Shown here: piece by piece, positions 7,941 through 24,906 of the stretch
Layout: each line of letters starts with the position of its first letter
Position numbering within the stretch: position 1 is the first letter of the stretch
Assembly (NCBI GenBank): GCA_903921325.1
Contig: CAIXPL010000028.1
Span: forward strand, 213,912 to 277,911
From: an uncultured Pseudomonadota bacterium
GTDB lineage: Bacteria > Pseudomonadota > Gammaproteobacteria > Burkholderiales > SG8-39
Direction: 5' to 3'
Length of the DNA: 64,000 nt
Notes under the pieces: model-generated
Told to the model about the DNA's origin: nothing
Database searches by the model: none
Seen by the model: the letters and a program-made list of their open reading frames with translations, nothing else
Position numbers and translations under genes: made by a program

Positions 7941-7963
7941 AAAAGCGCTGACCGCAATCAGCG
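7941..7963 (-). terminator. Probable intrinsic terminator of the pilus operon
   Basis: A 6-bp perfect stem CGCTGA/TCAGCG (7946-7951 and 7958-7963) with a 6-base loop lies between the convergent psiF-like and pilus genes. Read on the minus strand it is followed by CTTTT, so it would end transcription leaving the last pilus gene. The stem is short, hence the moderate confidence. Confidence 0.5.
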
Positions 7964-8010
7964 GCCGGCGCCTTTCCTGCGACCGCGTCAAAGCGATCTG
8001 CAGCATCAGA

Positions 8011-9525
8011 TCATTGGAGCGCAAACGTACCGCTGCGGGCAGGCGCAGTACAGTGCGCGAGCGCCGGGCCGGTGAGTCCACCCGCGGCACATTTCAAGGC
8101 CTGCTGATAAAGCAGGTGCGGGACGACCGGATCCACCAAATCGTCGGCTCTGGGCACGATGCCGGCATCAAGGCTTTGCGCATGACAACGTGCTGAAGTC
8201 TGCGACGGATCGCATTGACCCCAGACCAACTGAACCACCGCTTGTACAGTCGCGCTTAACGGCGCATCGATCAGGGATCGTTGTATCTGAAAAAATAGTG
8301 CCTGACTGGTCGGGTCCAGATTGCCGATGGCATTCGCCACGCCGTCATTGATCGGTCCAGACCATTGTGGCGCTGAGCCACCAGGTGAGCTCGGACTTGC
8401 ACCGATCCAGTTCGACCCCAGATCAATGAGTCCGGCACCCGTCGCTGTAAGGTCAATCGGCCGGCCATTGTTCAGGCCCGTGGCCAACACGCCGGCATTC
8501 TCAAGGACCCCCACGCCCTCTGGCAACAGCGCAACCGCATCGGCGGCAACAAGGGCAGGGGCAACCGAATATCGCTCTGGCACGTCGATCGAAACGGTGA
8601 GCCGCTGCGGTGATGAGGGCAGCTTGCCGCCAGTCCACACGGTGGCCCAGACCCCTGAGCTCACACGATGGGCTGATTCATCACAGTCGGTTACTGCCGG
8701 TGGGCCCGGATCACTGATGACGACCTGACCCGGGTCAGCGCAGATCACCGCCGAGATCGCGTTGCTCGCGGCAAGCTCTCTGGAGGACAACAGATACCAC
8801 TGAGGTTTGACGAAGCCATCGATCGTCCAGGTGACGGTGCGAAAGAATAGTCCCCCCACCGTTGTGCTCATGGTTTTGAATTGATAGTCACTCACCGCGA
8901 GCCAGCCAAAAACACTATCGTGCGTGCGCATGGCCAGACCCATCGCCACTTGCGCTGCCGCAAATGTCATGCGGTGGAATATGGGGTCTTGAGCGTCTCC
9001 CCGATGAGCGTTGAACGGGTTGTAACCCGGTGCGCCGGAGGTCTGCTCAGCGAGTGTCCGATATCGCCCATATGCGCGAAGATACTCTCCATGCCATGGG
9101 GTGAAATCCGCCAGGGATACGTACGCGGCCCCGTCCGGGCGTCGCTCCAGCCGCAGAGCCTGAACTCGCAATTGCGCCGTTTGGGGAGAATACCGCCCGA
9201 CGATCAGCGTGATCGGTCGGCGCAATCGCGGAATGGCGTCGCTCGTCATCGTACTGTCCAAGCCCAACATGCCCACTTCCTGTCGCCCTCTGGTTACCCA
9301 ACCGGGCGCGGCCAGCGGTGCTGTCTCTCGTGCGCTTGGCGCATGGGGTAACAGCTTGGCGATATCAACAAACTGGGCCTTTGGCACAGCGACCGGCCCG
9401 TTTGTCGTGCGAAGGGTCAGCCAATCGGCAGCATCACCAGAAGACCCGGCGAGCACCATCACAAACGCGATAAAGCATGCAATCGTGCGCGTGAACGCTC
9501 GGGCAGTCCGATCAACTTCCAGCAT
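8011..9525 (-). CDS. Unrecognised exported protein, last gene of the pilus operon
   Basis: A 504-residue protein I cannot assign. The ATG at 9525 gives a signal-like N-terminus (TIACFIAFVMVLAG, cleavage near AADWL); the frame also has a GTG at 9546. The mature part has few cysteines, clustered after residue 270 (VICADPG, VTDCDES) and again at the end (WGQCD, SARCHA, LKCAA, AHCTA), suggesting disulfides and an extracytoplasmic location. No enzymatic motif or further membrane span is visible. Its start overlaps the end of the preceding 636-residue gene by 14 bases, so it is translationally linked to the pilus operon. A pilus-tip, adhesin or conjugation-like surface role is inference from context only. 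Confidence 0.75.
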   Translation of the reverse strand: MLEVDRTARAFTRTIACFIAFVMVLAGSSGDAADWLTLRTTNGPVAVPKAQFVDIAKLLPHAPSARETAPLAAPGWVTRGRQEVGMLGLDSTMTSDAIPRLRRPITLIVGRYSPQTAQLRVQALRLERRPDGAAYVSLADFTPWHGEYLRAYGRYRTLAEQTSGAPGYNPFNAHRGDAQDPIFHRMTFAAAQVAMGLAMRTHDSVFGWLAVSDYQFKTMSTTVGGLFFRTVTWTIDGFVKPQWYLLSSRELAASNAISAVICADPGQVVISDPGPPAVTDCDESAHRVSSGVWATVWTGGKLPSSPQRLTVSIDVPERYSVAPALVAADAVALLPEGVGVLENAGVLATGLNNGRPIDLTATGAGLIDLGSNWIGASPSSPGGSAPQWSGPINDGVANAIGNLDPTSQALFFQIQRSLIDAPLSATVQAVVQLVWGQCDPSQTSARCHAQSLDAGIVPRADDLVDPVVPHLLYQQALKCAAGGLTGPALAHCTAPARSGTFALQ

Positions 9526-11422
9526 ACAAAGTGCAGACAAGGTCACAGGGATACCAGGGCATGGTTTGCGAACGCTGCCAGATCGGCTCTACGGCAACAT
9601 AGGTCGAGCACTGCGGCACGTCATCAAATATCTGGCAGCCGAATATGGGACCAGCATCTCCTGCAGGGTCAAGGCATGTCGTACCCGGGTCGCCGGACAG
9701 CGCCAGGAGCAGCGTGAACTGCCCGACGCGCAAGGATCCGGCAGGACAAGCAGACCCTTCAAACCAGAAGTTGATTGGCCCGCCCGACGGAAAATTCTTC
9801 CGGTCGACAAATCCGAAATTCGAGAAAAAGGCGGTCGCAGCAAACGTCTGCATCCCGGCGATATACCCTCCCTGCCACGCGATGCTCTGGTAAGCACGGG
9901 CAAATGTGAGGTTGTTCGCGCCATCGTACGACCACTGCACCGCTGGAATTCGGTCGCCGCCGTGGTACCACTGGTTTTGCAATGGCTGGCCCTGCACCAG
10001 CACCCAACTTTGGGCAGTGAACATGTCCTCGCTGCGAGCACAGTAATCGACACCGGCGCCCCCACCGATGACCAGATCAATATTGCCATCTGGTCGACAC
10101 GAAGCACTCAAGGCGATGGCCCGACCACACCAGCCAAAATATAGGTCGGCAAACAAGAAGCTGGCTGGTTGCACGCCGGTCGTTGTAACTGGTGCCAATT
10201 GAACGATGCCCGGAGTCGCTGCCACGGTTCGCAGTGGTCCTTCAGGATTGTCCAGATCGACCACAAAGTCCGCAATTGCGCTTTGCGATTGATTGGTCAA
10301 GTTGGTTCGGGTCACATCAAAAGGCACCCTGGGCGACATGTCAGCGCGGCTGAGAATGTCCACCAGATGTGCCGCCCCTCCGATCTCAACCCGGTAGCGC
10401 TCAGTGCGGGATTCCAGCATCACGCTGTAGGTCCCGCTATTTCGATAGCTGCCAGCAGTACAGGTATGTGGCCCCCACTGTCGATAGTCGACGCTGATTA
10501 CTGCTCGGGCGACCTGTTGCCACGATCCGTTATCTGTCTGGGTGAGCTTGTATACCGGTTTCAATTCGCGCAAGTAATCAAGTAAGGCGTAGGGCGCACC
10601 GGTTTGATCGAGAAGCTGTTGCACGTCGGGTGCCACCGGACAATGAGCGCCCGCCTGCCTGTTTTCAAGGCAGTAAAGTCCGAAGTCCGGGTCAATCGTT
10701 ATTCCAGTATTGTTGACAGGTTCGTCGTATGCCCCCTGCACATTGATGATTTTCCAATCGTCTAGCGCGACCAGCTGTCGATTCAACTGCCGCCAGAGCA
10801 ATTTTCCTGCATTGGGATAGGCAAATGCAGCAGGCAGTCCAGAGGTCACCGCCAGGGAAACGTAGGACACTTCGATGGGGCCTGTTTGCGAATCGATAAT
10901 CTCAGCATCGCCGTATTGAATGCGCGCCCCCGCTTGCAATAGCAAATGCCACGAGAGCGTGACTGGATGCACGACACCCGATACCTGAACTGTCTGCAAT
11001 AGATTGAATAGAGCGGCATCAGCGCCGTTTGAATGCATCCATGCCTCCAACGGTGCCGCGACCACCGCAGCCAGTGTTTGAGCCTGGCGGTTGATCGCTG
11101 ACAGGATTCCTGATCGAGTCTGCGACATTCCGAACTCAGTAGCCGGGAGAATCGGTAACAAGGAAGGATCGGCAACCACGTACGAAGTCGTATCGAGGGT
11201 GAGCACGCCGGCCTTGATGTGACCGCTGCCCACCTGAGCGGCAATGTTGACTCGCATATCGCCAGGGCCGGCAACCGTCTGGGTCACAACGACGACATTT
11301 TCAGCCTGCACAGTGCGCGCCTGCGCAACGACGAACAGCAAGAAAAAAAGTGGACCGAATGTTCGGATTCGCTGCGCAATCCAACAGATCGAAAGACACA
11401 TCGATTTAGTCCGAATCCTCAT
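9512..11422 (-). CDS. Unrecognised large exported cysteine-containing protein of the pilus operon
   Basis: A 636-residue protein with a signal peptide (FGPLFFLLFVVAQ, cleavage near VQAEN) and about 14 cysteines in the mature chain, concentrated in the C-terminal half (YFGWCGRA, SASCRPDG, SACPAG, TTCLDPAG, WYPCDLVC). The ATG at 11422 overlaps the stop of the PilP-like gene as ATGA. The rest is rich in aromatic and Asn/Gln residues with beta-type composition, like a surface or tip protein. I recognise no family. Size, cysteine richness and last-but-one operon position recall TraN-like mating-pair proteins or pilus-tip adhesins, but I see no specific motif for either. Confidence 0.78.
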   Translation of the reverse strand: MRIRTKSMCLSICWIAQRIRTFGPLFFLLFVVAQARTVQAENVVVVTQTVAGPGDMRVNIAAQVGSGHIKAGVLTLDTTSYVVADPSLLPILPATEFGMSQTRSGILSAINRQAQTLAAVVAAPLEAWMHSNGADAALFNLLQTVQVSGVVHPVTLSWHLLLQAGARIQYGDAEIIDSQTGPIEVSYVSLAVTSGLPAAFAYPNAGKLLWRQLNRQLVALDDWKIINVQGAYDEPVNNTGITIDPDFGLYCLENRQAGAHCPVAPDVQQLLDQTGAPYALLDYLRELKPVYKLTQTDNGSWQQVARAVISVDYRQWGPHTCTAGSYRNSGTYSVMLESRTERYRVEIGGAAHLVDILSRADMSPRVPFDVTRTNLTNQSQSAIADFVVDLDNPEGPLRTVAATPGIVQLAPVTTTGVQPASFLFADLYFGWCGRAIALSASCRPDGNIDLVIGGGAGVDYCARSEDMFTAQSWVLVQGQPLQNQWYHGGDRIPAVQWSYDGANNLTFARAYQSIAWQGGYIAGMQTFAATAFFSNFGFVDRKNFPSGGPINFWFEGSACPAGSLRVGQFTLLLALSGDPGTTCLDPAGDAGPIFGCQIFDDVPQCSTYVAVEPIWQRSQTMPWYPCDLVCTLYAGS

Positions 11423-12360
11423 TTGCTGACCGGGCCCGCGGGCCCGATCTCCTGCCCGCGAGGGAGCGCAACGCTGGGGCGTGCCTCGGATGGTGCTGGA
11501 GGTAACACCCATTGTGGGGCCTCACGATTGCCCGATCTTGAGGCATCTGGGTTGCTCAACCGATTGATCTCCAGACCAGGAATCGGCGGGAGAACTGCGA
11601 CTGGCGCTGTGACTGCCTGCGCATCCTGGCGAGCGATTGCGACATCCCTGCGCTCGCTTCCGCTGGGAACACGGTAGGTTCGTCCATTGAGGCTGATGTC
11701 CAGGCCGTCAATTTTGTCGACATGAATTGAGCCATGTGCCGACCCCTCAGACATCACCTCAATTTTGGAATTGACTTCGACCAGGGCAAATTGCTTGCCC
11801 ATCACCGTACTCACCCCCAGCACGCGCAGAGGTCTATCCGCCTCTGCCTGCGGTAGAGTCACAGGATGCGTGGTCGGCAAGACTGGAGACTCGGTGATCG
11901 GCGTGCCCATGGGCGAGCGCGACCTCGGTGGCACTGGCATTCCCGTTGCATTCCGCGGCATCGCCGAGCGCGCACTGCTTAATGGCGGCGCGATCGCGTT
12001 GACGTCCTTTGCCGCGAGCGCAGGAGCACTCGGACTTCTTAGCCGCTCAAGCTCGGCATGCAAGCGAGCCGCCGCCACTTCCTGCTCAAGCAGGCGGGTT
12101 CGTTGCTTTGCCAATTGAAGAGCAAGTCCAAGGCGATCATATTCAAGACTATTGGTGGAAAATGGGTTACGAGTAGCAACGCTGCCCGGCTCGTGCTCGA
12201 TGAGCTTGGTGTTATCACCTACAGAAAAAGTATCGGCCGGCACACCCTCCTTGAGTCCGACAGTCGGCTGGGCGTTGGCCATCGCGCACAACGTACTAAA
12301 CGATCCTGCAAGGATAACCGCACCCGAGATTCGGGCTATTGGGAGTTGGTAGGTCAACAT
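11419..12360 (-). CDS. pilP: Type IVb pilus periplasmic protein PilP-like
   Basis: A 313-residue exported protein. The leader MLTYQL...CAMANAQ is a signal peptide; the ATG at 12360 has GGAG eight bases upstream. Residues about 72-108 form a charged helix likely to coil (AKQRTRLLEQEVAAARLHAELERLR in two parts). After a proline-rich linker, residues 180-240 contain a small beta domain (LRVLGVSTVMGKQFALVEV, then VDKIDGLDISLNGRTYRVP) resembling PilP of R64-type pili, which links inner-membrane components to the secretin. The C-terminal tail is low-complexity. It follows the PilV-like gene by 32 bases and overlaps the next gene by ATGA. The name rests on domain pattern and context. Confidence 0.62.
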   Translation of the reverse strand: MLTYQLPIARISGAVILAGSFSTLCAMANAQPTVGLKEGVPADTFSVGDNTKLIEHEPGSVATRNPFSTNSLEYDRLGLALQLAKQRTRLLEQEVAAARLHAELERLRSPSAPALAAKDVNAIAPPLSSARSAMPRNATGMPVPPRSRSPMGTPITESPVLPTTHPVTLPQAEADRPLRVLGVSTVMGKQFALVEVNSKIEVMSEGSAHGSIHVDKIDGLDISLNGRTYRVPSGSERRDVAIARQDAQAVTAPVAVLPPIPGLEINRLSNPDASRSGNREAPQWVLPPAPSEARPSVALPRGQEIGPAGPVSK

Positions 12361-12392
12361 GGTTGGTTCTCCTTTGGGACCTCGGTCGCGTA

Positions 12393-13439
12393 TCAACCGT
12401 ATGCTCCAATGACCGTTGTGATCAAAGTCTGACCGCTGGGCAGCGGAGCAATGACGCGCGCAGTGAACGGTGGCAAGCTCCGGCGAGGGTCCGTCTGATC
12501 CGGGTTGTTGACCGCATCCGATGAGTTGTCAATCTGCAATTTCCAGCGGGTCATCAACGTGACATCGTCCGGCGCGAGGCCCAAGCCGGCGAGCAAATTG
12601 AGATCGGGAGAGTCTGCATTGACTGCGTGCCCCAAGGTGGAGGCGATCATGCCCTGCGATGCCGCGCTCTCAACTGATCCATCCCACATTGGTGATGCCC
12701 AATCGCCCAGGCGGTTCGAATTGGCGAAGTAGTCCACCTCGATCGCACGCGAAACGGAACTCAAATATCGTGTCGAAAAATAGGCCGCATAGGCCGCCGC
12801 AACGCGTGCGGATTTCTTTTGCGCATCGTCATAGGCGGCGCGTACGGCAGGTTGCCCGCTGACAACCTCTGCAATGTCATCGCCCTGCACCGTCAAGATG
12901 CCGCTTGACGAATTGAAGCTCGATTCGAATCGACCATTCATCCCGGCGGAAATTAATGCAATGACCCGATAGTTCAGGCGAACCTCGGGGAGTTCCAGAA
13001 CGAGGTCATCGGAAATCACCACGTTGACCGGGCGATGAAAGCTGTCGTTAGTTAATTGATTGACGCCGCTGGTTGCGCAAGGTTGCAATGCCTGGGTGAC
13101 ATTCGGATTCCATTGGAATCCATTCGCATTTGCACTCAGTGCAGTGCCTCTTGTGGAACCGTCCGTCGCTGACAGCTTTCCTCCTTTCAGTAGCACACCA
13201 TTGAAGGCCACGGAATTGGGATCCGACGAGAAAGCGGTGGCAATCTCTTGCGTGATACAGCGCTCAATAGCCATTCGCAGTAGCCGCAGATTGAAGTGCG
13301 ATTCCTGCCTTTGACCGTATTCCAGAATACTTGCGCCGGTCGATAGAAGACTGACCGACAGCAGCGAAATGACAGCCATCACCACGACGAGTTCGAGTGC
13401 GCTGAATCCTCCGGCAGTTCCCGTTCGTGGTGGCGGCAT
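12393..13439 (-). CDS. Minor pilin, PilV-like size
   Basis: A 348-residue prepilin. An 11-residue leader ends in AGG, then F-SALELVVVMAVISLLSVSLLS, a class III signal with Glu at mature position 5. The long helix is followed by a roughly 300-residue domain with two cysteines (RCITQ, QPCATSG) that could form a disulfide. The length and order after the major pilin fit PilV-type minor pilins of R64 pili. No shufflon recombinase or inverted C-terminal cassettes are visible downstream, so the C-terminus is probably fixed. It starts 8 bases after the Glu5-less pilin. Processing needs a prepilin peptidase encoded elsewhere. Confidence 0.75.
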   Translation of the reverse strand: MPPPRTGTAGGFSALELVVVMAVISLLSVSLLSTGASILEYGQRQESHFNLRLLRMAIERCITQEIATAFSSDPNSVAFNGVLLKGGKLSATDGSTRGTALSANANGFQWNPNVTQALQPCATSGVNQLTNDSFHRPVNVVISDDLVLELPEVRLNYRVIALISAGMNGRFESSFNSSSGILTVQGDDIAEVVSGQPAVRAAYDDAQKKSARVAAAYAAYFSTRYLSSVSRAIEVDYFANSNRLGDWASPMWDGSVESAASQGMIASTLGHAVNADSPDLNLLAGLGLAPDDVTLMTRWKLQIDNSSDAVNNPDQTDPRRSLPPFTARVIAPLPSGQTLITTVIGAYG

Positions 13440-13447
13440 TGCCAGGG

Positions 13448-14290
13448 TCAGAGCTTTTGAATTGCGTAGATTCGGATCGACTGCCCAAACGGGGTCCTGG
13501 ACCGCAAGACCATCGAATAGGGGGGCGACTGAGTTTCACAGTCCTGGTCATTGGAAATCTCGATTGCGCCTCCCCAGGCATCGGTCGCTGGTGCGGGATC
13601 CAGGCCGAACGATGCCCAGGCGATGTCCTTTGCTCGCATGTATCCGTCTGTCGCAGGCAGGGACTGCCCTTGAGCCTGGCAACTCGGGTCGGGGCGGAAG
13701 GGATTGCAGGCAATCTCACCCAACTCTTGTCGAGCCCTGGATGCCGCCCAATGTTCAATTCGCTCGGCAAATTGCGCAAGGTACGCTGACGTATCCTTGA
13801 ACGCAGCCTGCTGCAGCGAAAGGCCCGACACCACTTCAGTAAGTGCACCAGAAAAATCCACGACGTGACCGCTGCGTGGGTCCCAGTGAGGTGAGCCGGC
13901 GGATTGACCCGGTATCCACAGCAGGAGGATATGTCCCGCCACTTGTCGATCTGAAATCAACGCGCTGGACCAGCTCCGCAAACCAAATTGAGGCGTGATG
14001 TTTGCTGCCGTAAGCAGGCTGCCCATTTCAAGCGGTCCTGAGATTGCCGCCACTTCAGCCAGGTGGCTTCGATACCATAGCGTTACCAACGCAGCGCTTC
14101 GCGAAAGATAATCTCGTTGTGATGAATTCCGATTCGCTGCAATGGCGGCCAACCGCTCCACCATCAGCGAGGCAAGGCACAGACTGAACAGGCTCATTGC
14201 CCCGAGCAGCAGAATCGCGACGGCAAATCCCCGCTGAAGGCGCATTGGCCGCTGGGGGCACCGCAGTCGCCCGGCCAATCCCGATTGCAT
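13448..14290 (-). CDS. Pilin-like minor subunit lacking Glu5
   Basis: A 280-residue protein with a prepilin-like N-terminus: a positively charged leader ending LQRG, then F-AVAILLLGAMSLFSLCLASLMV. Mature position 5 is Ile instead of the Glu that normally pairs with the neighbouring subunit, as in GspK/PilX-type tip pseudopilins, which lack it because nothing sits above them. The ectodomain has a Cys pair (IACNPF, PSCQAQ) and a third Cys (DQDCETQ). The start may be 14290 or the ATG at 14245 (MRLQRG), which would give a 6-residue leader. Gaps to the neighbours are 16 and 8 bases. The pilin class is clear; tip location is inference. Confidence 0.7.
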   Translation of the reverse strand: MQSGLAGRLRCPQRPMRLQRGFAVAILLLGAMSLFSLCLASLMVERLAAIAANRNSSQRDYLSRSAALVTLWYRSHLAEVAAISGPLEMGSLLTAANITPQFGLRSWSSALISDRQVAGHILLLWIPGQSAGSPHWDPRSGHVVDFSGALTEVVSGLSLQQAAFKDTSAYLAQFAERIEHWAASRARQELGEIACNPFRPDPSCQAQGQSLPATDGYMRAKDIAWASFGLDPAPATDAWGGAIEISNDQDCETQSPPYSMVLRSRTPFGQSIRIYAIQKL

Positions 14291-14306
14291 GATGCGCTGC
14301 CGGTGA

Positions 14307-14861
14307 TTAAGTCAGGTCGAATTCAAGCGTCAACGTGCCATTGCCGCTGGAACCCTCGGCAGCGACGCAACGTCCGGCAGACTGGCGTGCACCGTTGCAC
14401 GCAGTTAGGGCTTTGGGTAACACCTCATTTGGAATATGGGATGCCGTGATCCGCCAGTGCGTTCCGATCGAGTCCTGCGACTGTGTGATGCCCAGAGTCG
14501 CGCCGGCTCCAATATTGGAGATGATGATGTTGCCGCTGCCATCGACTGGCGCGGGCTGAGCGTAACGTTGATGCCATTGCGCGGAGATGTCCAAACCACA
14601 AAAACTGTTGTCGGCATTCGCTTTTGTAGGATCAAACAACACATCCATTCTGGTTGGATAGCAGGAAAAGTCGTTCTTTGCCATGAGCATGGCATTGGCA
14701 TAGTCGTTCATTGCACTTGACAATGCGATGCCTCTTGAATTGCTCTGGTCATAGCTGAAAACTGCGATTCCGCTGATCAGCGCCATCGCTGCCAGTACCG
14801 CAATCATTTCTATCGCAGAAAAGCCGCCTTGGCGGTCAATACGGCTGAGCTGTGACTTCAT
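14307..14861 (-). CDS. pilS: Type IVb major pilin, PilS-like
   Basis: A 184-residue prepilin, the likely main pilus subunit. The ATG at 14861 has a GGAGAACAG ribosome site; an upstream ATG at 14885 has none. The leader MKSQLSRIDRQGG is 13 residues, then F-SAIEMIAVLAAMALISGIAVFSY with Glu5. The mature protein is about 171 residues with Cys pairs FSCYP/SFCGL and TACNG/GRCVA, the second forming the C-terminal disulfide loop usual in type IVb pilins. It sits between the platform protein and the minor pilins, as in the R64 order pilR-pilS. Mature N-terminal Phe is less usual for type IVb than Met, Leu or Trp. Confidence 0.82.
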   Translation of the reverse strand: MKSQLSRIDRQGGFSAIEMIAVLAAMALISGIAVFSYDQSNSRGIALSSAMNDYANAMLMAKNDFSCYPTRMDVLFDPTKANADNSFCGLDISAQWHQRYAQPAPVDGSGNIIISNIGAGATLGITQSQDSIGTHWRITASHIPNEVLPKALTACNGARQSAGRCVAAEGSSGNGTLTLEFDLT

Positions 14862-14896
14862 CTGTTCTCCAGGAGTTTGGTTCATAGGTCGAAGAT

Positions 14897-16096: not shown

Positions 16097-16098
16097 TG

Positions 16099-18096
16099 TT
16101 AGGCCTCCAGGTCGATGTGGGCGCACAGCTCATCAATCGAAGTCAGTCCTTCAGCGACCAACGCCAGTGCGTTGTCGCGCATTGAATTGCCCTCCATTGC
16201 CTTGCGCAGCGCTGAAAGGGGTGCCGCCGTTTCAAGTTGATCGCGGAGCTTCTTTCCGCAGTGAAGCAATTCATAGATCATCCGACGTCCTCTGTAGCCG
16301 GTGTGCCCGCAACTTCCGCACCCGTTGTCGGCCGCCCGAAATGCAATTGGATCGCGTTCCCTGGGCATTGACCTCTGGCCCAAGGGGGCAAGCAATTGGT
16401 AGGTGCTCTGCCGCTCATCGGGCACTTTGCAGCGAACGCAGAGTTTGCGAACAAGTCGTTGGGCAAGAACGCCCAGCAGGATCGATGCCGCCTTTTCACC
16501 TGGCACCGCCAGGTCTTCAAGCCGTCTGATGGCCTCTGCCGCACCATTGGTGTGAAGTGTCGAGAGAACCAAATGGCCGGTGTTGGCCGCCCTGAACAGC
16601 TCACGAGCCGTATTCTCGTCACGAACCTCGCCAAACAGAATCTTGTCCGGCGCATTGCGCAACAGGCCCTTCAGCGCCAAGGCCCATTGGTCACCCTCAT
16701 CCTTATTCAGACCCGGACTCAATGGAAACTGTTGCCACAGTCCGTGCGTGTATTCAACTGGTGATTCAACGGTTTGAATGCTCTCGCACACAGGGTCAAC
16801 CGATTGCAGCAACGCGTACAGTGTGGTCGTCTTGCCCGATCCTGTAGGCCCGCAGATCAGAAGTACCCCGCTTCTCGAGCGCATGTATGCGAGCAGCAGG
16901 TGCAATGTCCGAGTATCAAACCCGAGTTGATTCAATTCGACGGCAGTTGACTGACGGTCATTGATCCGAATGGTGACCGTTTTCCCCTGAACTGCGTTGC
17001 CTATCTCTACCCGGAACACGTAACGCTCAACGATGTCTGCATAGCGATCTCGGATTCGCACTGCGTGTTCGTTTCTGCTGGTGTTGAGGTCAAGGGAACA
17101 CTCTGTGAAGCCGCACAGCAGCTTCTCGTCTGCCACACCGCTCAACAGGGAATTTCGCATGACACCGATCATCTGATCGAGCAGATCCGTCGGAACGCTG
17201 CGCAGGAGTGCCCAAATGCCATCGGTCTTCAGCTTGATCATGCCGATCCGATGCGAGCGATAAAGGCAAAGGTCACTCGCTCCGGTATAGCACGCGTGTC
17301 TGAGCAGAGCCATGAACATGTCCTGATATAGCCCGCTCTGAGTCAAATCTTCACGAAGCCGCAGCGCAAGGAAATGCCGTTCCATCAGATCCGTGAGCGC
17401 GGCCGCAGTTCGCGCGAAGTGTCGTCGATAGAGCACCTGGCAAGTCGCACTCGATGCGACGTGGAAGTGACACTCATAGTCGCGGAATTGACTGGTCGCC
17501 TCTGCAATCGATCGAATATCGGATATGACAATCGAGATCCTGACTCGCGGATGAGCGCGAACCAATGCAATCGGTACAAAGCCGCGAAATTCTTCCAGTC
17601 GAATCTCGGAATCGAGCAAAGACTCGATCGGAACGTCATCAATTTCGCTCCACGGAAGGAAGTCCAGGCCGTGCTCAATCGCGATCACCTTGGCAACCTG
17701 CTCTTGCGATAACAATCCCCAATCTCGCATGACCTCTGATAGCGGTTCATGAAACTGCTTTTGGCGCTCGAGGGCGATCTGGATGTGATGATTTGGCATC
17801 CCCATGCGTTGAAGAATTTCGCGAGATGTCATGAAACCTGAAAAGAGCCGTTGAACCGCCTGCGCTAGATCTTCAGGCTTCAGCGCCGTCTGATCGATCA
17901 GAACACGGCCCAGCAATTGACCGGATCTCGCCTGGCGTGCCAATGCGTCTGCAAGCTGTGTCTGCGTGATGCTTCCAGAGTGCACAAGCAACTCCCCGAG
18001 GCGCATTCGTCCGGGTGTTGGCAGTGCGGCTGCCAACTCGTCGGTGACATCGCAATTTCTTTCCCGATGCAGTGGTTCTGATATCAATTGGGTCAT
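16099..18096 (-). CDS. pilQ: Type IV pilus assembly ATPase (GspE/PilB family)
   Basis: A 665-residue secretion ATPase powering pilus extension. Residues 1-160 are an MshEN-like N-terminal module (LGELLVHSGSITQTQLADAL and a second copy with LIDQTALKPEDLAQAV). The Walker A GPTGSGKTT is at about residue 417, the Walker B region ILFGEVRDENTA about 75 residues later, and the His box HLVLSTLHTNGA follows. A zinc-binding site LCVRC...GCGSCGHTGYRGRR lies at about residues 550-595, as in PilB/GspE. Note GEVRD instead of the more common GEIRD. The start overlaps the previous stop as ATGA. This is the assembly type; no PilT-like retraction ATPase is in the cluster. Confidence 0.92.
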   Translation of the reverse strand: MTQLISEPLHRERNCDVTDELAAALPTPGRMRLGELLVHSGSITQTQLADALARQARSGQLLGRVLIDQTALKPEDLAQAVQRLFSGFMTSREILQRMGMPNHHIQIALERQKQFHEPLSEVMRDWGLLSQEQVAKVIAIEHGLDFLPWSEIDDVPIESLLDSEIRLEEFRGFVPIALVRAHPRVRISIVISDIRSIAEATSQFRDYECHFHVASSATCQVLYRRHFARTAAALTDLMERHFLALRLREDLTQSGLYQDMFMALLRHACYTGASDLCLYRSHRIGMIKLKTDGIWALLRSVPTDLLDQMIGVMRNSLLSGVADEKLLCGFTECSLDLNTSRNEHAVRIRDRYADIVERYVFRVEIGNAVQGKTVTIRINDRQSTAVELNQLGFDTRTLHLLLAYMRSRSGVLLICGPTGSGKTTTLYALLQSVDPVCESIQTVESPVEYTHGLWQQFPLSPGLNKDEGDQWALALKGLLRNAPDKILFGEVRDENTARELFRAANTGHLVLSTLHTNGAAEAIRRLEDLAVPGEKAASILLGVLAQRLVRKLCVRCKVPDERQSTYQLLAPLGQRSMPRERDPIAFRAADNGCGSCGHTGYRGRRMIYELLHCGKKLRDQLETAAPLSALRKAMEGNSMRDNALALVAEGLTSIDELCAHIDLEA

Positions 18097-18641
18097 CCCA
18101 GAATCACGAGGTCGGCATCAAAGGTGTCGGCAAATACGTCGATGCCGGCAATCACCGCGCCCAGTTCGCGCAGGCACTCAAGGAAAGCAGTCAGACCCTC
18201 AATAGACTCATGCCGACCGCGCAAGCGCAGGCGAACGCGCTGCACCTGGGGTGCCGCGGCAAGGTGCTCGATCAACTCGGAGATTCTTCGAGACTTTCCC
18301 AAAGCTGGTTTTGCGGCGGGACTCAGCTGCGTAATGCTGACCAGGTAGGCAGAGGACCGTTGCTTGAGCATTTTATTCAGGCGATGCAATCTCGCTGCCA
18401 TCGGGATTGCGTGGTTGCGGGCGCGGGTATCGACGAACTGATCCATTGAGCGGTTGGTCTTTCCAGCCGAGGAAAGCGCCGTGGTCAGTGCCGCGAGCTT
18501 CCCGCGCCTCTCGGTAAGCGTATGGCTCAGTTCCTCCAGGCGCATTCTCTGTGCCTCGAGCGTTGTGTGTCGCGGTTCGATGATGGCGACGCTAACGCAC
18601 GAGATAATCGAGCAAGTGATCGTTAGGCGTCTGGAATTCAT
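18093..18641 (-). CDS. Small PilO/GspM-like inner-membrane pilus protein
   Basis: A 182-residue bitopic protein: a short cytoplasmic N-terminus, one membrane span (LTITCSIISCVSVAI), a coiled-coil stretch (residues 30-60, TLEAQRMRLEELSHTLTERR) and a ferredoxin-like C-terminal half with RRISELIEHLAAAPQVQRVRLR and FLECLRELGAVIAGIDV. This architecture matches PilO/GspM-type components that form the inner-membrane ring with PilN/GspL. The start at 18641 (MNSRR) overlaps the PilO2 gene by 50 bases; an in-frame earlier start at 18674 has no better support. It ends overlapping the ATPase start by ATGA. Homology is inferred from architecture, not from a signature. Confidence 0.6.
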   Translation of the reverse strand: MNSRRLTITCSIISCVSVAIIEPRHTTLEAQRMRLEELSHTLTERRGKLAALTTALSSAGKTNRSMDQFVDTRARNHAIPMAARLHRLNKMLKQRSSAYLVSITQLSPAAKPALGKSRRISELIEHLAAAPQVQRVRLRLRGRHESIEGLTAFLECLRELGAVIAGIDVFADTFDADLVILG

Positions 18642-19761
18642 AGTCGAAATCCATTTCACGGTCGGCGCCCTCAAATGTCATAACAGGTGATTCGCCCATA
18701 GGCTGCAATCGCACGACCGAATCGGTTGGGCCAGAAGGCAGTTTGGGCAGCTGCGGTTGATCGGTTGCCGCGCTATCGGTAACCGCCACACTCACGCGCG
18801 CCGGGCGTTCCAGTGCGTGAATCGTGGCGCGCCCCCCAGGCGGCGTGACCGATGAGGCCGATCGCACGAGTGCCGTGACGTCAAGCGACCCTAACTCTTC
18901 CAATAGGGGTAGACCGTTTTCAATCGTTGCAGCGAAGCTGGATCGGATCAGCTCTTCCTCTGCCGCAAGCCTTGCCTGCGCGGTCTTGAGATGTTCCGCT
19001 TGAGTCGAAAGCGAGACGACGTCGACTGCCAGAGCCATGCAGGCGGCCAGACTGCCCCCAGCTGCAGCCAGCCACCAGCGACTGGTGGGCACTCCCAGAA
19101 ACATGTCCTCGTTTGGATAAGCTGGTGGTGCCGGAGTGGCTGTGACGGCGTCATACAGGGCGACGCAGTCAAGCAGCGCTAGGCGATGCGCCTGCTCATT
19201 CTGCAGTCCGTGTCTCGCACAGTATTCATTGATGATTTGTTGCGATTGATACTGGGCGTTTTCGGTGTACTCGAGGTCACGCATCTGTCCATACCCGTCC
19301 ATCGCCCACAGCGCCAGAATCTGGCACTCGCCTGGTGCGCCTCCGAGGTTCACACCGACGACCGCGGGACGGGTCGAGTGGACTGCTGCTGGAACAAGCG
19401 ATTCGACGACAAGTCCCAGCGGAGTCATGCTGCAACCGCCTGACAGCGAGTCAGCGGTTCGCGCGTAGATCGCCCCTGTCACCAATGAGTAGTTGATGAT
19501 CCGAACGCGCTTGCCCAAGCGCAGCCGCGCAAGGCGCGTGGCTTTGGTCGTTGATACTGGCCGTTTGGATACCAGCCTTAAATCGGTCGTGGTCAGCGTG
19601 AGCGCTCGCGCAGGTGCAGGTTCAGGACCAGTGCCTGACCCCGCGAACCGGTCTAGACCGGTTCGCGTGATTCGCCACCAGGTGCCTGAGTGCAAGCGTG
19701 ACTCCAAATAGAGCCAAACCTCTGCGGTTCGAGGATTATCGGAATCCCTTACTCGCTTCAC
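18592..19761 (-). CDS. pilO: Type IVb pilus protein PilO2-like
   Basis: A 389-residue protein with a GTG start at 19761 that forms a GTGA overlap with the secretin stop; earlier in-frame codons lie within the secretin and encode only charged filler. Residues 1-235 form a cytoplasmic part with an actin-like or ring-component look, then one span at about residues 240-262 (WWLAAAGGSLAACMALAVDVV), a short helix (LKTAQARLAAEEELI) and a periplasmic tail. This is the layout of PilO2 proteins in R64-like pili (PilM/N-like bitopic inner-membrane protein). It follows the secretin, as pilO follows pilN in R64. Assigned by layout and order. Confidence 0.65.
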   Translation of the reverse strand: MKRVRDSDNPRTAEVWLYLESRLHSGTWWRITRTGLDRFAGSGTGPEPAPARALTLTTTDLRLVSKRPVSTTKATRLARLRLGKRVRIINYSLVTGAIYARTADSLSGGCSMTPLGLVVESLVPAAVHSTRPAVVGVNLGGAPGECQILALWAMDGYGQMRDLEYTENAQYQSQQIINEYCARHGLQNEQAHRLALLDCVALYDAVTATPAPPAYPNEDMFLGVPTSRWWLAAAGGSLAACMALAVDVVSLSTQAEHLKTAQARLAAEEELIRSSFAATIENGLPLLEELGSLDVTALVRSASSVTPPGGRATIHALERPARVSVAVTDSAATDQPQLPKLPSGPTDSVVRLQPMGESPVMTFEGADREMDFDYEFQTPNDHLLDYLVR

Positions 19762-21338
19762 AGTGATTCTCCGATCAGCGGGTCGATGCTGGGCGCTGGC
19801 GCGATCCTCGCGTGGAGCATCAATACGAGTTCGCGCGTGAGCTTTTGTTCTTCGGATCCTGCAATCCACTGACCGATGGTGTAATCGAAAAGACCGGGAA
19901 TGCCACTGGCACTTTTATATTGATTGGTAAAGCGACTGCCGCCGATGATGTAAGTCTTACCGGCTTCCAGCAATACCTTGAGATGGCTCGAACTTGTCGG
20001 TATGTCGTATCCAACCAGGATCGTGGACGGACCGGCAGCAAATGACTGCTGGTTGGTGGCTGTGGTCAGCATCGGGATAATGGTCATTTCGGCGTGCGAG
20101 TCGTCGATGATGTTGGGGCGAAACGCCAGTGAGACACCGTCCATCACATATGAAAGTGTCCCTGCGGTCGTTGCCAGTGAACCCGTTGAACTGATCGAGG
20201 TGGCAACTGAGCCCAGGTAGGGCTTCTCGGTTGCGTTTAGAACAATGCCGGCTTGGTGATTAAGCATCCAGAGTTGCGGCTCAGCGACGACTTTGGTCCG
20301 GGTACGGGACTGGAGCGCCTTGATGACGCTGGTGATAGTCGCGCTGGTGACCTGACCACTCGCGCTTGGATTTTGGACAACCGAGGAGCCCGTTACCCCG
20401 AAGGTGAGGGTGCGCCCGTTCGGACTCAGGATTCGAGTCCAGTCGATGCCATGAGAAAGTTCGTCATCGAGCGAGATCTCTACCAGGGCGACTTTGAGTT
20501 CGACCTGTCGAGCAGCGTCTTGAGTAACTGTCTCCATGAATGCGGTCACCCGCTGGAGGGCCGTGCCGTCAGCACGCACGGTGATCATGCCGGTCTCGGG
20601 GATGATGGTGACTTGTGCTTGACGTCCGGCCAATTCGCGCAGTGCGGTGAGAATGGATGAGAGCGCACCGGTGGTTCTGCCCTGTACCTTCATTCCTGTT
20701 GAATTGGCGCCATGACTTGCGCCTGCAATGGCTGACAGTGGTGTCGTACCTGACCCCAGTGGTGCGCCCGAAGGGCCTGCAGCGCCAATACCCGAAGCAT
20801 TTGCCCCAGGCAGACTGGTTCCCGACAAGCCTGCTGCGGTATTGGAGCTGACGAAATAGTCAGTGTTTACGTTCTCTAATAGATGAACCGGTATCCGATA
20901 GGTATAGGTGGCCTCTTTCGCGACATAGATCGCTCGCCGTTGCGGATTGATAATCGCTGCGAGTCCTGCTGATGCGGCGATTTCCCGCACGGTGCGATCG
21001 AAGGTCAGGTCGCTGAGATGGACCGTGCGTTTGTCGTCCGGAATTCCCGCGACTGCGATAACGGTGTAGCCGTTCGGCTCAGCGACTGACCGAAGAAGCG
21101 CAAGCAACGGAGTATCTGTCGCCTGAACGGAAACGGAGTCAGCGGTGGCGGCATAATCGATGCGATCCGCGCCGACGTACGGTTGCGAGACACGCCTCAG
21201 ATCGTGCGCAATGCTCAGTGCTTCAGCGATCTGTTTCGCCTCAGCTTGGGTCTGGCGATGAACTTCCGAAGCATTGTCCGGAAGGGTGCAAGCGCTTGCC
21301 ATTGCGGTGGCAAGAGCAAAGTGCGCCGGAATTTTCAT
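19758..21338 (-). CDS. pilN: Type IVb pilus outer-membrane secretin (PilN/BfpB family)
   Basis: A 526-residue secretin that forms the outer-membrane pore for the pilus. The leader ends ASAC (Cys17), a weak lipobox, consistent with the lipoprotein secretins of R64 and Bfp systems. N-domains span residues 60-270, interrupted by a Gly/Ala/Ser-rich linker around residues 170-215. The secretin core includes VELKVALVEISLDDELSHGIDW, TRTKVVAEPQLWMLNHQAG and the end GIPGLFDYTIGQWIAGSEEQK followed by RELVLMLHARI. The start overlaps the TcpQ-like stop by ATGA and the end overlaps the PilO2 start by GTGA. The family assignment is secure. Confidence 0.9.
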   Translation of the reverse strand: MKIPAHFALATAMASACTLPDNASEVHRQTQAEAKQIAEALSIAHDLRRVSQPYVGADRIDYAATADSVSVQATDTPLLALLRSVAEPNGYTVIAVAGIPDDKRTVHLSDLTFDRTVREIAASAGLAAIINPQRRAIYVAKEATYTYRIPVHLLENVNTDYFVSSNTAAGLSGTSLPGANASGIGAAGPSGAPLGSGTTPLSAIAGASHGANSTGMKVQGRTTGALSSILTALRELAGRQAQVTIIPETGMITVRADGTALQRVTAFMETVTQDAARQVELKVALVEISLDDELSHGIDWTRILSPNGRTLTFGVTGSSVVQNPSASGQVTSATITSVIKALQSRTRTKVVAEPQLWMLNHQAGIVLNATEKPYLGSVATSISSTGSLATTAGTLSYVMDGVSLAFRPNIIDDSHAEMTIIPMLTTATNQQSFAAGPSTILVGYDIPTSSSHLKVLLEAGKTYIIGGSRFTNQYKSASGIPGLFDYTIGQWIAGSEEQKLTRELVLMLHARIAPAPSIDPLIGESL

Positions 21339-21949
21339 CGTGTCAGCGCTCCGTCGGAGAGACGGACCTCCAAAACCTGGTTGCCTTCCCAGTAGGTTGC
21401 CGATAGATCGTAGGAGTCCAGAGCCTTCCTTACGATGGATTCGACCGAATCTCCGTCAATTCGATAGCCCTGCTGGGCGCGGAAGTCCGCCCTTGCATTC
21501 CACTGGAGGGCGATCCGATGACGATTCAGGAAAGACTTCAATGCCATTGATAAACGTTGGCCCTTGGCCACCTCGAGGGTGTAGGCAACCTCTTGCCCAT
21601 TGGGACCTGATGACAATTGCGCAAGGTTGGTTGGCTCATTCTGCGAAATTGCGCGCGAACGGACGGAAGCATCGGTGTGATTCATTGTTTCTGCCGTGTG
21701 ACCAGCCTCGACACCTGCGTGCTCTACGCTGGCCGCTGCTAGAAGTAATTCACCGTGTGCAATTTCAGGCGGTGGGGTTTGCAGCTCGCCTCGGATCGCT
21801 TCAAACCTCCAAACGGGAATCGGACCACCGCGCACGATGATTCCCGCGGTCAGACGGGACGCGATCGTTCCGTCTGACAATCGGTAAAACGCATACGCGC
21901 TGGGTAAATGAGCGCAGACCACGATCAATGCGATGACGACAAGGCGCAT
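21335..21949 (-). CDS. TcpQ/PilL-like pilus outer-membrane accessory protein
   Basis: A 204-residue exported protein. I use the ATG at 21949 because it begins a signal peptide (MRLVVIALIVVCAHLPSAYA); the frame is open to 22093 inside the transglycosylase gene but codes only charged sequence. The last 90 residues form a TcpQ-type domain: VAKGQRLSMALKSFLNRH, LQWNARADF, YRIDGDSVESIVRKAL, then YWEGNQVLEVRL. TcpQ-like proteins chaperone and anchor the secretin, and this gene directly precedes the secretin with an ATGA overlap, as pilL precedes pilN in R64. There is no lipobox, unlike R64 PilL. The central 70 residues are low-complexity. Confidence 0.72.
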   Translation of the reverse strand: MRLVVIALIVVCAHLPSAYAFYRLSDGTIASRLTAGIIVRGGPIPVWRFEAIRGELQTPPPEIAHGELLLAAASVEHAGVEAGHTAETMNHTDASVRSRAISQNEPTNLAQLSSGPNGQEVAYTLEVAKGQRLSMALKSFLNRHRIALQWNARADFRAQQGYRIDGDSVESIVRKALDSYDLSATYWEGNQVLEVRLSDGALTR

Positions 21950-22034
21950 AGTCAAGCGGGCTTCCGGTCGCCGCCAAAGGGCGAACGCGTGTTGGTGGCG
22001 CGGGCTGTTTGCCGCACGCCTCCTGTCGGTTTCA

Positions 22035-22559
22035 TCATCGCCGCGCGTCGCGCTCAATCTGCGCGATCGCTGCGTGAAAGCGCTCGTCGACAAACCGGAA
22101 ATTTCGAGTCAGACGAGCGTAATACTGGCGAGCTGCGGGCGTGCCCGCGCTCGCTTCGGCGTGAGACCAGTAGGCTGCATAGGCTTGCCATGTCCAGCCA
22201 AAGGTGCGTAGGTTGTCGCGAATGACTTCGGCTGCGATATGCGCACCGTGGTAGGGGTGATGTACCCGGTCGAGGCCTGTGCGCCCGGCCTGATGGTACG
22301 TGTTGATTTGAAACAGGCCGCGGTCGAGTCCTCGCGCACCTGGTCGAACCGCATAGAGGTCAATCGTGCTGTTTTCATTGAGCATGTAGGCCGCCAACAA
22401 TCGAGGGTCTGTTTCTGTATCTTTCGCCGCCGCGCAGAGGCTTTGAGCGATCCATTTGCTCGTGGCTTGGCCAAGATTCGGATTTTTTTCGGTTACGACC
22501 AGAAGCAAGGCAATGGTGCAAGTGGCCAGAGAGAACATGAGAGCGAGGGCATCAGGCAT
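22035..22559 (-). CDS. Lytic transglycosylase-like protein (SLT domain), pilus-associated
   Basis: A 174-residue protein with an N-terminal signal or anchor (LMFSLATCTIALLLVVTE) and an SLT-type domain. The likely catalytic Glu is in LAAYMLNENS (near residue 62), followed by GARGLDRGLFQINTYHQ, matching the GxxGLxQI signature. Such enzymes open peptidoglycan for pili and type IV secretion (PilT of R64, VirB1). The start overlaps the preceding sigma/ParB-like gene by 8 bases, and the stop lies 85 bases before the TcpQ-like start. It is one of few features shared by pilus and conjugation systems. Function is well supported by motif and context. Confidence 0.8.
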   Translation of the reverse strand: MPDALALMFSLATCTIALLLVVTEKNPNLGQATSKWIAQSLCAAAKDTETDPRLLAAYMLNENSTIDLYAVRPGARGLDRGLFQINTYHQAGRTGLDRVHHPYHGAHIAAEVIRDNLRTFGWTWQAYAAYWSHAEASAGTPAARQYYARLTRNFRFVDERFHAAIAQIERDARR

Positions 22560-23766: not shown

Positions 23767-23886
23767 GAGTGGGAACCTAGTCGTATGTTTAGTTGATAGA
23801 CTATTACGCTAGTATTTCAGATGGTAATACTATATTATAGTGTAATGATTGTCGAGTGCTGTTAACATGCTGAAACTAATGGACAT
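23767..23886 (-). promoter_or_regulatory. AT-rich control region upstream of the pilus operon core
   Basis: The only sizeable gap within the operon (120 bases, conspicuously AT-rich beside high-GC genes). It holds an exact inverted repeat TAGTATT-N9-AATACTA at 23810-23832 and an overlapping perfect palindrome ACTATA-T-TATAGT at 23829-23841. The latter contains a minus-strand TATAAT (23834-23839), with a TTAACA 20 bases further upstream as a poor -35. It is a likely promoter/operator for the sigma/ParB-like gene and what follows. Confidence 0.5.
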
Positions 23887-24906
23887 TCAGCAGTTGCTAA
23901 CCGAATCGAATGGAACGCAGCAGGTAGTCGGCCGCCAATAAATCCAGGCGTAAGCGCCATCGGAGCTGCGCAACATATCGGTGGGTAACGCTCCCGGTGC
24001 ACCCGCCTGAACGCAGGAACTCACCGCCGGATAGGCCTGCTGGAACTTGCCGGCAACGTCCACCGGAAAGGGAAAGCTGCCCAAGTCGGTGCGTGCTACA
24101 GACATCCCGCGATAGGCTGCAATCGCCGAACTGCGAACCTCATCGGACCCCAGTGAGCGCATTTGCCGCGGATAGAGTGGTCCCCAAGCGCCAATGCAAG
24201 GGTCACCTTCCAAAGATTGGACGAGCGTGCCGCCGACATCAACAGACGCGGTGATCGCGCATTTTGCAACGCCCCTTTCAAAGAGATTTTGAAGCGTCAA
24301 GTCGCGGCAACCCGTCCGCCAGTTGAGAAAGTCCAGTTCGCTTAGATACGCAGGGGTCATCGTTACACCGAGCGTCTCAAACGATCCCTCCACCGCGGCA
24401 CCGAGTGCAGCCGATAGCATCTCCGTGCCACACATGTTGATTGCGGCCATCGGACTTGGTTGCGCAGGAACACGAGCACTCGAGAGTTTGCAACTCTGGC
24501 AGCCGTTGTGAAGCTGCACCAGACGCTCGGGCATCGAAAAGACATGAACCTCGTAAGTTGAATCCTTGCCGTTGGCGTGCGTCTGGCGCGTCTGAGCCAA
24601 AGCCGCCGCTCCGCTCGAACCCATTGCCATCAGATCGAAGCCTGCGAGCATTGACTCACCCGGGAATCGGGTGGTTTCGATAAAGCTCGCAGGCACGAAC
24701 TGGCTCACCCGATACGCGCACGGTACGGCACCGCAATAGCAGACACCGGTGACCACGCGCGCCGAACAGGTGGGGGACGAGCTGATCCGGGAGACCACAT
24801 CGGCAGGGGTCTGCGCCGGCAGCGCCCAAAGGTCGGCGGGTAAAGCGAAAAGGATCATCGCCCACGCACCAAACAGGATCGTCACGGATCGATCTGCATT
24901 TCCCAC
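23887..24906 (-). CDS. TraU-like conjugation protein (integrating conjugative element TIGR03756-type)
   Basis: A 339-residue exported protein. The GTG at 24906 follows GGAGGGTGAGGTAAG; the signal peptide ends near LWALPAQ. The start of the mature part (CSARVVTGVCYC...PCAYRVSQFVP) and the later WGPLYPRQ with a following AIAAYRGM match the pattern of TraU and the related ICE protein family, periplasmic factors needed for DNA transfer rather than pilus growth. It has about 16 cysteines. It sits at the head of the type IVb pilus operon, 120 bases before the sigma/ParB-like gene. Its presence without tra ATPases or relaxase in the window is odd; it may be a borrowed envelope component. The family call is moderate. 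Confidence 0.62.
   Translation of the reverse strand: MGNADRSVTILFGAWAMILFALPADLWALPAQTPADVVSRISSSPTCSARVVTGVCYCGAVPCAYRVSQFVPASFIETTRFPGESMLAGFDLMAMGSSGAAALAQTRQTHANGKDSTYEVHVFSMPERLVQLHNGCQSCKLSSARVPAQPSPMAAINMCGTEMLSAALGAAVEGSFETLGVTMTPAYLSELDFLNWRTGCRDLTLQNLFERGVAKCAITASVDVGGTLVQSLEGDPCIGAWGPLYPRQMRSLGSDEVRSSAIAAYRGMSVARTDLGSFPFPVDVAGKFQQAYPAVSSCVQAGAPGALPTDMLRSSDGAYAWIYWRPTTCCVPFDSVSNC

What the first reader, a model, noticed from the sequence alone, without database searches (positions are those of the whole stretch)
8011..24906. A type IVb pilus operon fused in context with conjugation-type and novel proteins
Fifteen same-strand genes, most overlapping by 4-50 bases, encode an R64/Tcp-like pilus machine with an unusual roster. 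A TraU-like protein and a sigma/ParB-like protein sit at the head, two unrecognised exported proteins are at the end, and a small PilO/GspM-like protein lies between PilO2 and the ATPase. This may be a distinct pilus variety or a domesticated piece of a conjugative element with a new task such as DNA uptake, adhesion or mating. The core assignments are from visible motifs; the novelty is inferred.
Basis: partly seen in the sequence, partly recalled or inferred. Interest (0 to 1): 0.75.

Follow-up and report, generated by a model that had tools for sequence, protein, structure and literature searches.

The report
Chromosome-borne conjugation pilus led by TraU
A bacterium, probably of the order Burkholderiales, carries in a large chromosome-like contig a 15-gene pilus operon whose full gene set recurs on a circular contig, likely a plasmid, beside conjugation-type genes, and the pilus likely brings cells into contact for a DNA- or protein-transfer channel whose genes lie elsewhere in the same genome.

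Summary
The 15 genes are real, same-strand and tightly packed. They form a type IV pilus operon of a variety for which I found no description: secretin, ATPase with c-di-GMP-binding domain, platform, three pilin-like proteins, two exported proteins with no family over cut-off. It is headed by a divergent TraU of the F-type transfer family. By sequence it is not an R64 pilus. All 15 genes recur on a circular 254-kb contig (G051:C7); 9-12 of 15 recur on Limnohabitans, Robbsia and Variovorax plasmids, after conjugation (T4SS) genes. The other two genomes of the genus carry 14 of 15. In the window no integrase or tra gene was seen among 18 neighbouring genes scanned, and no tRNA or flank repeat. 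The F-like T4SS (TraE, K, B, C and others) that accompanies the pilus on G051:C7 lies here on another contig, C8, at a site shared by all three genomes. Across 399 sampled genomes of the order, the strong TraU and strong TraC matches fall in the same five. Best reading: a plasmid-derived mating pilus and secretion channel, split over two host loci and kept by purifying selection. The window's species has no coupling-ATPase gene at the T4SS locus, where its two relatives have one.

The parts
23887..24906 (-). g1: TraU-family exported protein (divergent branch), first gene of the operon
   Evidence: PF06834 E=1.2e-17, 65 bits, over cut-off; also TIGR03756 (ICE protein) E=2.7e-14, below its cut-off; invariant Cys/Trp in a 41-row alignment; the canonical TraU on C38 scores 393 bits
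22552..23766 (-). g2: putative HTH regulator (sigma-70 region 4-like, weak)
   Evidence: no family itself; homolog L020 Sigma70_r4_2 E=0.0015, G051 homolog ParB_N E=0.0035, both below cut-off; follows g1 in G001, G002, G051
22035..22559 (-). g3: lytic transglycosylase (SLT)
   Evidence: PF01464 over cut-off; found in G051 and Robbsia, not in G001/G002; profile matches the R64 SLT protein
21335..22093 (-). g4: TcpQ/PilL-C-like periplasmic protein
   Evidence: PF10671 E=1.3e-4, below cut-off
19758..21338 (-). g5: secretin (MshL/PilN type)
   Evidence: PF00263 E=1.9e-15; TIGR02519 107 bits against TIGR02520 73 bits, both below cut-offs
18592..19869 (-). g6: protein in the PilO2 position (no PF06864 match); start probably downstream
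   Evidence: homologs in six other clusters
18093..18674 (-). g7: small GspM-like protein (weak)
   Evidence: PF04612 E=0.0016, below cut-off
16099..18096 (-). g8: pilus assembly ATPase with N-terminal MshE-type c-di-GMP-binding domains
   Evidence: PF00437 E=1.1e-70; NF053729 over cut-off; tree with plasmid ATPases
14897..16126 (-). g9: inner-membrane platform, T2SSF type
   Evidence: PF00482 E=1e-17
14307..14885 (-). g10: pilin-like protein (major pilin candidate)
   Evidence: TIGR02532 over cut-off; GG|FSAIE cleavage site read from the sequence
13448..14290 (-). g11: pilin-like protein without Glu5 (GspK/PilX-like by eye)
   Evidence: sequence; no family; homologs in six other clusters
12393..13439 (-). 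g12: minor pilin candidate
   Evidence: N-methylation motif, weak; GG|FSALE site
11419..12396 (-). g13: periplasmic PilP/GspC-like protein (by eye)
   Evidence: alignment A8; hhalign with R64 PilP only 13.8%
9512..11512 (-). g14: exported protein of unknown family; predicted TolB-N/LpoB/FlgT-like core
8011..9546 (-). g15: exported protein of unknown family
   Evidence: homologs in G001, G002, G051, pTEGF4, Robbsia in the same order; no usable model

Best explanation
The operon encodes a type IV pilus of the kind carried by Burkholderiales plasmids with conjugation genes, is headed by a TraU of the F-type transfer family, and is likely the cell-docking half of a plasmid-derived transfer machine whose secretion-channel half is encoded on contig C8 of the same genome. 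Shown: gene content and order, full recurrence on a circular contig beside a T4SS, the C8 T4SS homologous to that one, its shared site in three genomes, low dN/dS, and TraU/T4SS co-occurrence in one sample. Inferred: pilins are cut by the one A24 prepilin peptidase found; the ATPase, tuned by c-di-GMP, extends the pilus through the secretin; the pilus holds a partner cell; TraU completes the C8 channel, linking pilus and channel expression. Also inferred: the machine came from a G051:C7-like megaplasmid. The substrate (ssDNA, as in the gonococcal genetic island, or protein) is undecided. The window's species has no coupling ATPase at the locus and might borrow the one on C38.
For: 15 of 15 genes in the same order on G051:C7, a 253,684-base contig closed by a 55-base terminal overlap, with a T4SS and, by eye, ParB- and primase-like genes. 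Pilus cluster after T4SS genes on pTEGF4 (10/15), Robbsia p3 (12/15) and Variovorax WDL1 plasmid 2 (9/15). ATPase tree groups window, G001, G002 and G051:C7 (100/100), these with the three plasmids (100/100), apart from three of the host's own ATPases and R64 PilQ. Seven ORFs of the C8 locus (L037) match the G051:C7 T4SS, TraC at E=1.9e-244, the weakest at 1e-9; TraC_F_IV and TraE over Pfam cut-off. The C8 locus shares flanking genes with G002 and, split over two contig ends, with G001. Strong TraC (E<=1e-200) and strong TraU (E<=1e-50) each occur in 5 of 399 genomes, the same five handles, at separate loci in four of them. dN/dS 0.09-0.25 for the T4SS, TraU and pilus genes measured. No mobility gene among 18 window genes outside the operon scanned, no tRNA, no 12-base repeat shared by the two flanks. 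Conjugative type IV pili of PAPI-1 and TP114 bind recipients and stabilise mating pairs (PMC5297154, PMC9045228; passages).
Against: No functional data. The five co-occurring genomes come from three genera, and the E-value cut-offs were chosen after seeing the lists. In the second genus (G248, G335, G307) TraU stands without pilus neighbours in the two genomes whose TraU surroundings I read, and none of the three is among the 23 g14 matches, so TraU and T4SS do not need this pilus there. Pilus and T4SS loci are unlinked in G000-G002, so their joint work is inference. No T4CP was seen at the C8 locus in G000. G001/G002 lack g3, and all three lack the PilT-like gene that the four plasmid-type clusters have between g11 and g12. 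TraH- and TraG-like names rest on position; Pfam did not support them. dS between G001 and G002 is near saturation. Contigs are not closed, so a second chromosome-like replicon is not excluded. The pilus site differs between G000 and G001/G002.
Confidence: 0.6

Rival explanations
1. A recently inserted or still mobile ICE/plasmid fragment: the operon is simply an integrated conjugative element's pil cluster, not host-owned.
For: Relatives are plasmid-borne. The pilus site in G000 is not the G001/G002 site. Operon G+C is 0.576 against 0.589 to its left and 0.609 to its right.
Against: No integrase or tra gene among 18 neighbouring window genes scanned, no tRNA, no shared 12-base flank repeat. 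3 of 3 genus genomes have it, at about 30-63% protein identity to the window. G001/G002 share the upstream flank. The partner T4SS site is shared by all three.
Confidence: 0.15
2. A free-standing adhesion, twitching or DNA-uptake pilus that has lost any link with the T4SS; TraU is a passenger.
For: Pilus and T4SS are on separate contigs. G000 has no coupling ATPase at the T4SS locus. The MshE-type domain and MshL-like secretin resemble adhesion pili. The genome has a PilT-type ATPase elsewhere.
Against: TraU heads the operon in G000, G001, G002 and on G051:C7 and has dN/dS about 0.18. Strong TraU and TraC matches are in the same 5 of 399 genomes.
Confidence: 0.2
3. The g1 TraU and the pilus serve the canonical F-type (GGI-like) T4SS on contig C38 instead.
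For: C38 carries TraU, TraC, TraH, TraG_N, a TrbI-family TraB, a coupling protein and a topoisomerase. Its coupling protein is the only PF12696 match in G000.
Against: C38 has its own canonical TraU (393 bits). G001 has only one TraC match, the C8-type one, yet keeps the operon. The circular relative pairs the pilus with the C8-type T4SS.
Confidence: 0.05

Closest known systems
   Same: Same gene order with 15, 10, 12 and 9 of 15 genes matched; T4SS genes beside them
   Different: All four carry a PilT-like ATPase between g11 and g12 and linked T4SS genes; the window has neither. TraU and g2 were not found in the fetched stretches of the last three, and the tblastn with TraU lists none of their genera
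R64 thin pilus / PAPI-1 conjugative type IVb pilus
   Same: Role as conjugation pilus (PMC5297154, passages); ATPase, SLT and secretin matched with profiles (R64 only)
   Different: No R64 PilO2, PilV or PilU match; no PF06864; the only A24 peptidase found is on another contig. PAPI-1 proteins were not compared
Gonococcal genetic island T4SS
   Same: F-like T4SS in a chromosomal island, with TraU; secretes ssDNA (PMC4207684, passages)
   Different: The GGI is one island with TraD, TraI and a full F-like set (paper); here two loci, divergent TraU, no TraH/TraG_N Pfam match over cut-off and no T4CP at the C8 locus. The C38 system is the closer look-alike
Pseudomonas megaplasmids, IncP-2/pBT2436-like (assignment by size, recalled)
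   Same: TraU relatives at 27-29% identity among the listed Pseudomonas rows and distant TraC relatives at 24-25%; the paper reports traGBV, type IV pilus and chemotaxis genes and shows p1 and pOZ176 transfer (PMC7070040, passages)
   Different: Plasmid-borne; only distant identity; their pilus genes were not compared here

Membership tests
Type IV pilus (type IV filament superfamily) | Assembly ATPase, platform, class III pilin and secretin | tested here: met
   PF00437, PF00482, TIGR02532 (g10), PF00263 over cut-off
R64 thin-pilus variant of type IVb pili | PilO2 (PF06864) | tested here: not met
   No PF06864 in g6 at E<=0.1 or in four homologs at E<=1; hhalign to R64 PilO2 0.3%. The paper says the older Pfam model missed members (PMC3984277, passages)
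R64 thin-pilus variant of type IVb pili | PilV tip adhesin and PilU peptidase in the cluster | tested here: not met
   No match of the 15 proteins to R64 PilV or PilU at E<=10; only A24 peptidase found in the genome is on C37
Type IVb pilus in general | TcpQ/PilL-type partner, long leader, larger pilin | tested here: inconclusive
   TcpQ E=1.3e-4 below cut-off; 192-aa pilin ORF with about 21-residue leader, start uncertain
F-type T4SS (C8 locus plus g1) | TraC, TraE, TraU | tested here: met
   TraC_F_IV and TraE over cut-off; TIGR02746 E=2.5e-53 but below its equivalog cut-off; TraU over cut-off
F-type T4SS (C8 locus plus g1) | TraB, TraV, TraA | tested here: inconclusive
   TrbI-like E=4.1e-6 and TraV E=0.012 below cut-off; NF010289 TraB E=5.1e-13 and NF041281 TraA E=0.0016 below cut-off
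F-type T4SS (C8 locus plus g1) | TraH and TraG N-terminal domain, TraN, TraF, TraW/TrbC | tested here: inconclusive
   No TraH; TraG_N E=0.012 and TraF E=0.0042 only in pOS401 homologs, below cut-off; the others were not searched one by one
Conjugative or integrative element | Relaxase, coupling protein, integrase, att repeats with the cluster | tested here: not met
   PF08751, PF03432, PF07514 have no match on C28 or C8 (PF03432 has one on C24); no T4CP at C8 in G000; no integrase in 18 neighbours scanned and no flank repeat. G051:C7 and pOS401 also lack the three relaxase families, so this is weak

The most novel reading that the evidence does not exclude
A host-owned transfer machine, not a mobile element: a conjugation pilus and an F-like secretion channel captured from a megaplasmid have become fixed at two separate chromosomal loci, tied together by a TraU gene that sits in the pilus operon, and work as one contact-dependent device for moving DNA or protein between cells. 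The channel and TraU have been fixed a second time, without the pilus, in another genus.
Probability: 0.4. Interest if true: 0.8.

Novelty: new variant of a known kind. Interest (0 to 1): 0.6.

Why it matters
It would show a bacterial lineage keeping a whole conjugation-type machine for its own use, split over two loci; the comparable case I know is the single-island gonococcal T4SS. It also defines a plasmid pilus family that I could not find described (g14 in 23 of 399 genomes of the order), whose two conserved exported proteins, g14 and g15, are candidates for recipient recognition or an outer-membrane ring.

Tried and rejected
R64 pilus: rejected as a label, because only g8 (phmmer) and g3, g5, g8 (profiles) match, and hhalign of g6 with PilO2 and g13 with PilP gave 0.3% and 13.8%.

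Solved-structure searches with g1, the TraU alignment and the g6 alignment gave nothing meaningful. The g6 hits are designed repeat proteins aligned over 23 residues.

pOS401 was first taken as a full relative of the pilus; one search shows matches for 4 of 15 (g1, g8, weak g3 and g10). It is kept as a T4SS and TraU relative only.

First ATPase tree: row own_L034 was a wrongly picked ORF, and several long rows met. It was redone without own_L034, own_L033, the PilT-like rows and the pOS401 rows; 12 of 20 rows kept.

Relaxase absence: three families tested. Because plasmid relatives lack them too, it is not used as proof of domestication.

Promoter/terminator scan: fewer sites than the mean of shuffles, uninformative. 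Homolog searches for g14 and g15 found only 4 and 2 proteins.

Literature: of the titles listed none is about this cluster. Each listing shows only the best 2-20 papers, mostly of larger sets, in an open-access library, so this is a limited check.

Full report
What is there. The window holds 15 same-strand ORFs at 8011-24906, read from high to low coordinates. Ten of 14 junctions overlap. I number them g1 (23887-24906) to g15 (8011-9546). Pfam and NCBIfam give TraU for g1, SLT for g3, secretin for g5, an ATPase with MshE-type c-di-GMP domains for g8, T2SSF for g9 and a pilin motif for g10, all over cut-off; g12's motif is weak. TcpQ for g4 and GspM for g7 are below cut-off. Nothing over a cut-off was found for g2, g6, g11, g13, g14 and g15. 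I scanned 18 window genes outside the operon: FAD hydroxylase, TctC receptors, cupin, hydrolase, deacetylases, GST, peptidase, molybdopterin dehydrogenase, dioxygenase and the like; two had no family at E<=1e-5, and none is an integrase, transposase or tra gene. There is no tRNA in the window and no 12-base repeat shared by the two flanks of 1.2-1.3 kb compared.

Where else it occurs. In the window's genus, the two other genomes held (G001, G002) carry 14 of 15 genes in the same order; g3 was not found. They sit on contigs of 78 kb and 526 kb. Protein identity to the window ranges from about 30% (g13) to 63% (part of g5). G001 and G002 share the upstream flank of the operon; G000 has it at another site. 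All 15 genes recur on G051:C7, a 253,684-base contig of another family. Its ends overlap by 55 bases, so it is circular, and it carries a T4SS and, by eye, ParB- and primase-like genes. Plasmid pTEGF4 has 10 of 15, Robbsia p3 12 of 15 and Variovorax WDL1 plasmid 2 has 9 of 15. On these three the pilus genes follow VirB- or F-type T4SS genes directly or a few genes later. Seeds for the profiles included pTEGF4 and Robbsia where they matched, so their E-values are partly by construction. All four of these clusters have a PilT-like ATPase between g11 and g12, absent in the window's genus. In an ATPase tree of 12 rows the window, G001, G002 and G051:C7 form a clade (100/100), joined with the three plasmids (100/100) and apart from three of the host's own ATPases and R64 PilQ (a first tree, held a wrongly picked row). 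The g14 profile matches 23 of 399 genomes of the order.

The partner. The genome has a second locus on C8 (336-kb contig), fetched as L037. Seven of its ORFs match the T4SS on G051:C7, TraC at E=1.9e-244, the weakest at 1e-9. Pfam names TraC and TraE over cut-off, with TrbI-like (TraB) and TraV below. A TraA/VirB2-like small protein is weak, and TraH- and TraG-like names rest on position. The C8 locus shares flanking genes with G002 and with G001, where it is split over the ends of two contigs. A small gene beside it (184 aa in G000) has a relative next to an actin-like partition-type gene (by eye) on G051:C7, which hints at plasmid origin. G001 and G002 have a coupling ATPase there. In G000 the place is a 190-base gap, and the only match to the coupling-protein family in the genome is on C38. 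C38 carries a separate canonical F-type system with its own TraU.

Is TraU tied to that T4SS? In the order-wide sample (399 genomes, same handles in both listings), strong TraC matches (E<=1e-200) are in 5 and strong TraU matches (E<=1e-50) are in the same 5: G000, G051, G248, G307, G335. At the looser cut-offs used in the searches the counts are 7 (TraC, E<=1e-40) and 12 (TraU, E<=0.001), and the extra genomes do not coincide. The strict cut-offs were set after seeing the lists, the profiles include members of these genomes, and three of the five are one genus, so this is suggestive and not an independent count. Among 61 relatives, TraU is in 4, and all 4 have the strong TraC. In the second genus, TraU and T4SS lie 2.6 Mb apart in coordinates on a single 3.28-Mb contig (G248), and no pilus gene lies next to TraU in G248 or G335 (G307's TraU surroundings were not fetched). 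On plasmids too TraU can lie apart from the T4SS core: pOS401 has TraU at 45.7 kb and TraC at 87 kb.

Selection. By Nei-Gojobori counts, dN/dS is 0.11-0.15 for TraC, 0.17-0.18 for TraG-like, 0.19-0.25 for TraH-like and 0.18 for TraU in the second genus. Between G001 and G002 it is 0.09 for TraC, 0.18 for g1, 0.15 for g8 and g9, 0.16 for g14 and 0.24 for g15. dS in the latter pair is 0.9-2.0, near saturation. Two flanking control genes of the second genus (surA- and glyS-like by eye) gave 0.06 and 0.17.

How it most likely works. Conjugative type IV pili of PAPI-1 and TP114 bind recipient cells and stabilise mating pairs (PMC5297154 and PMC9045228, passages read). By analogy the g10/g11/g12 filament, extended by g8/g9 through g5, would hold a partner cell while the C8 channel, completed by TraU, opens between the cells. 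The one A24 peptidase found, on C37, would process the pilins. The gonococcal genetic island shows that an F-like T4SS in a chromosome can secrete ssDNA (PMC4207684, passages). There TraD is essential. Absence of the coupling gene at the locus in the window's species therefore means that it borrows C38's, moves something else, or is losing transfer. This is inference.

g14. The AlphaFold core (blocks 71-450) averages pLDDT 86, and weak structural matches point to TolB N-domain/LpoB-like and FlgT-like domains. An outer-membrane or periplasmic ring role is a guess worth testing.

Names. The order is probably Burkholderiales. Gene names marked 'by eye' come from recall of family sequences, not from a call.

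Verdict. The operon is a variety of plasmid-type conjugation pilus that I could not match to a described one, found here in a host-fixed setting with its likely channel at another locus. It is a new variant of a known kind, not a new category.

Noticed in passing
G000:C38, loci L035 and L036: A separate canonical F-type T4SS (TraU, TraC, TraH, TraG_N, TrbI-family TraB, coupling protein, topoisomerase) on a 114-kb contig.
   Followed up: partly
G248:C1 about 466-473 kb and 3,070,846; also G335, G307: Another genus of the order has the C8-type T4SS and a TraU at distant sites or separate contigs in 3 of 3 genomes matched.
   Followed up: yes
P0099: A g14 relative is predicted as one ORF with a piece of a PF00437 (PilT-type by eye) ATPase in front of it, perhaps a deletion scar of the PilT gene that plasmids carry nearby.
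   Followed up: no
L040 (pSMJS2), 7346-12814 and 21301-31443: The distant TraU of Halopseudomonas pSMJS2 lies near PRTRC genes, a sigma factor-like gene and a chemotaxis cluster; Robbsia p3 also has PRTRC genes.
   Followed up: no
L009, 2959-10936 (Acidithiobacillus marinus): A TraU relative downstream of primase-, SSB- and AAA-like genes (by eye) on a small contig.
   Followed up: no
L020 12560-13003: G001 has a different 148-aa ORF in the stretch where the window has the lytic transglycosylase g3.
   Followed up: no
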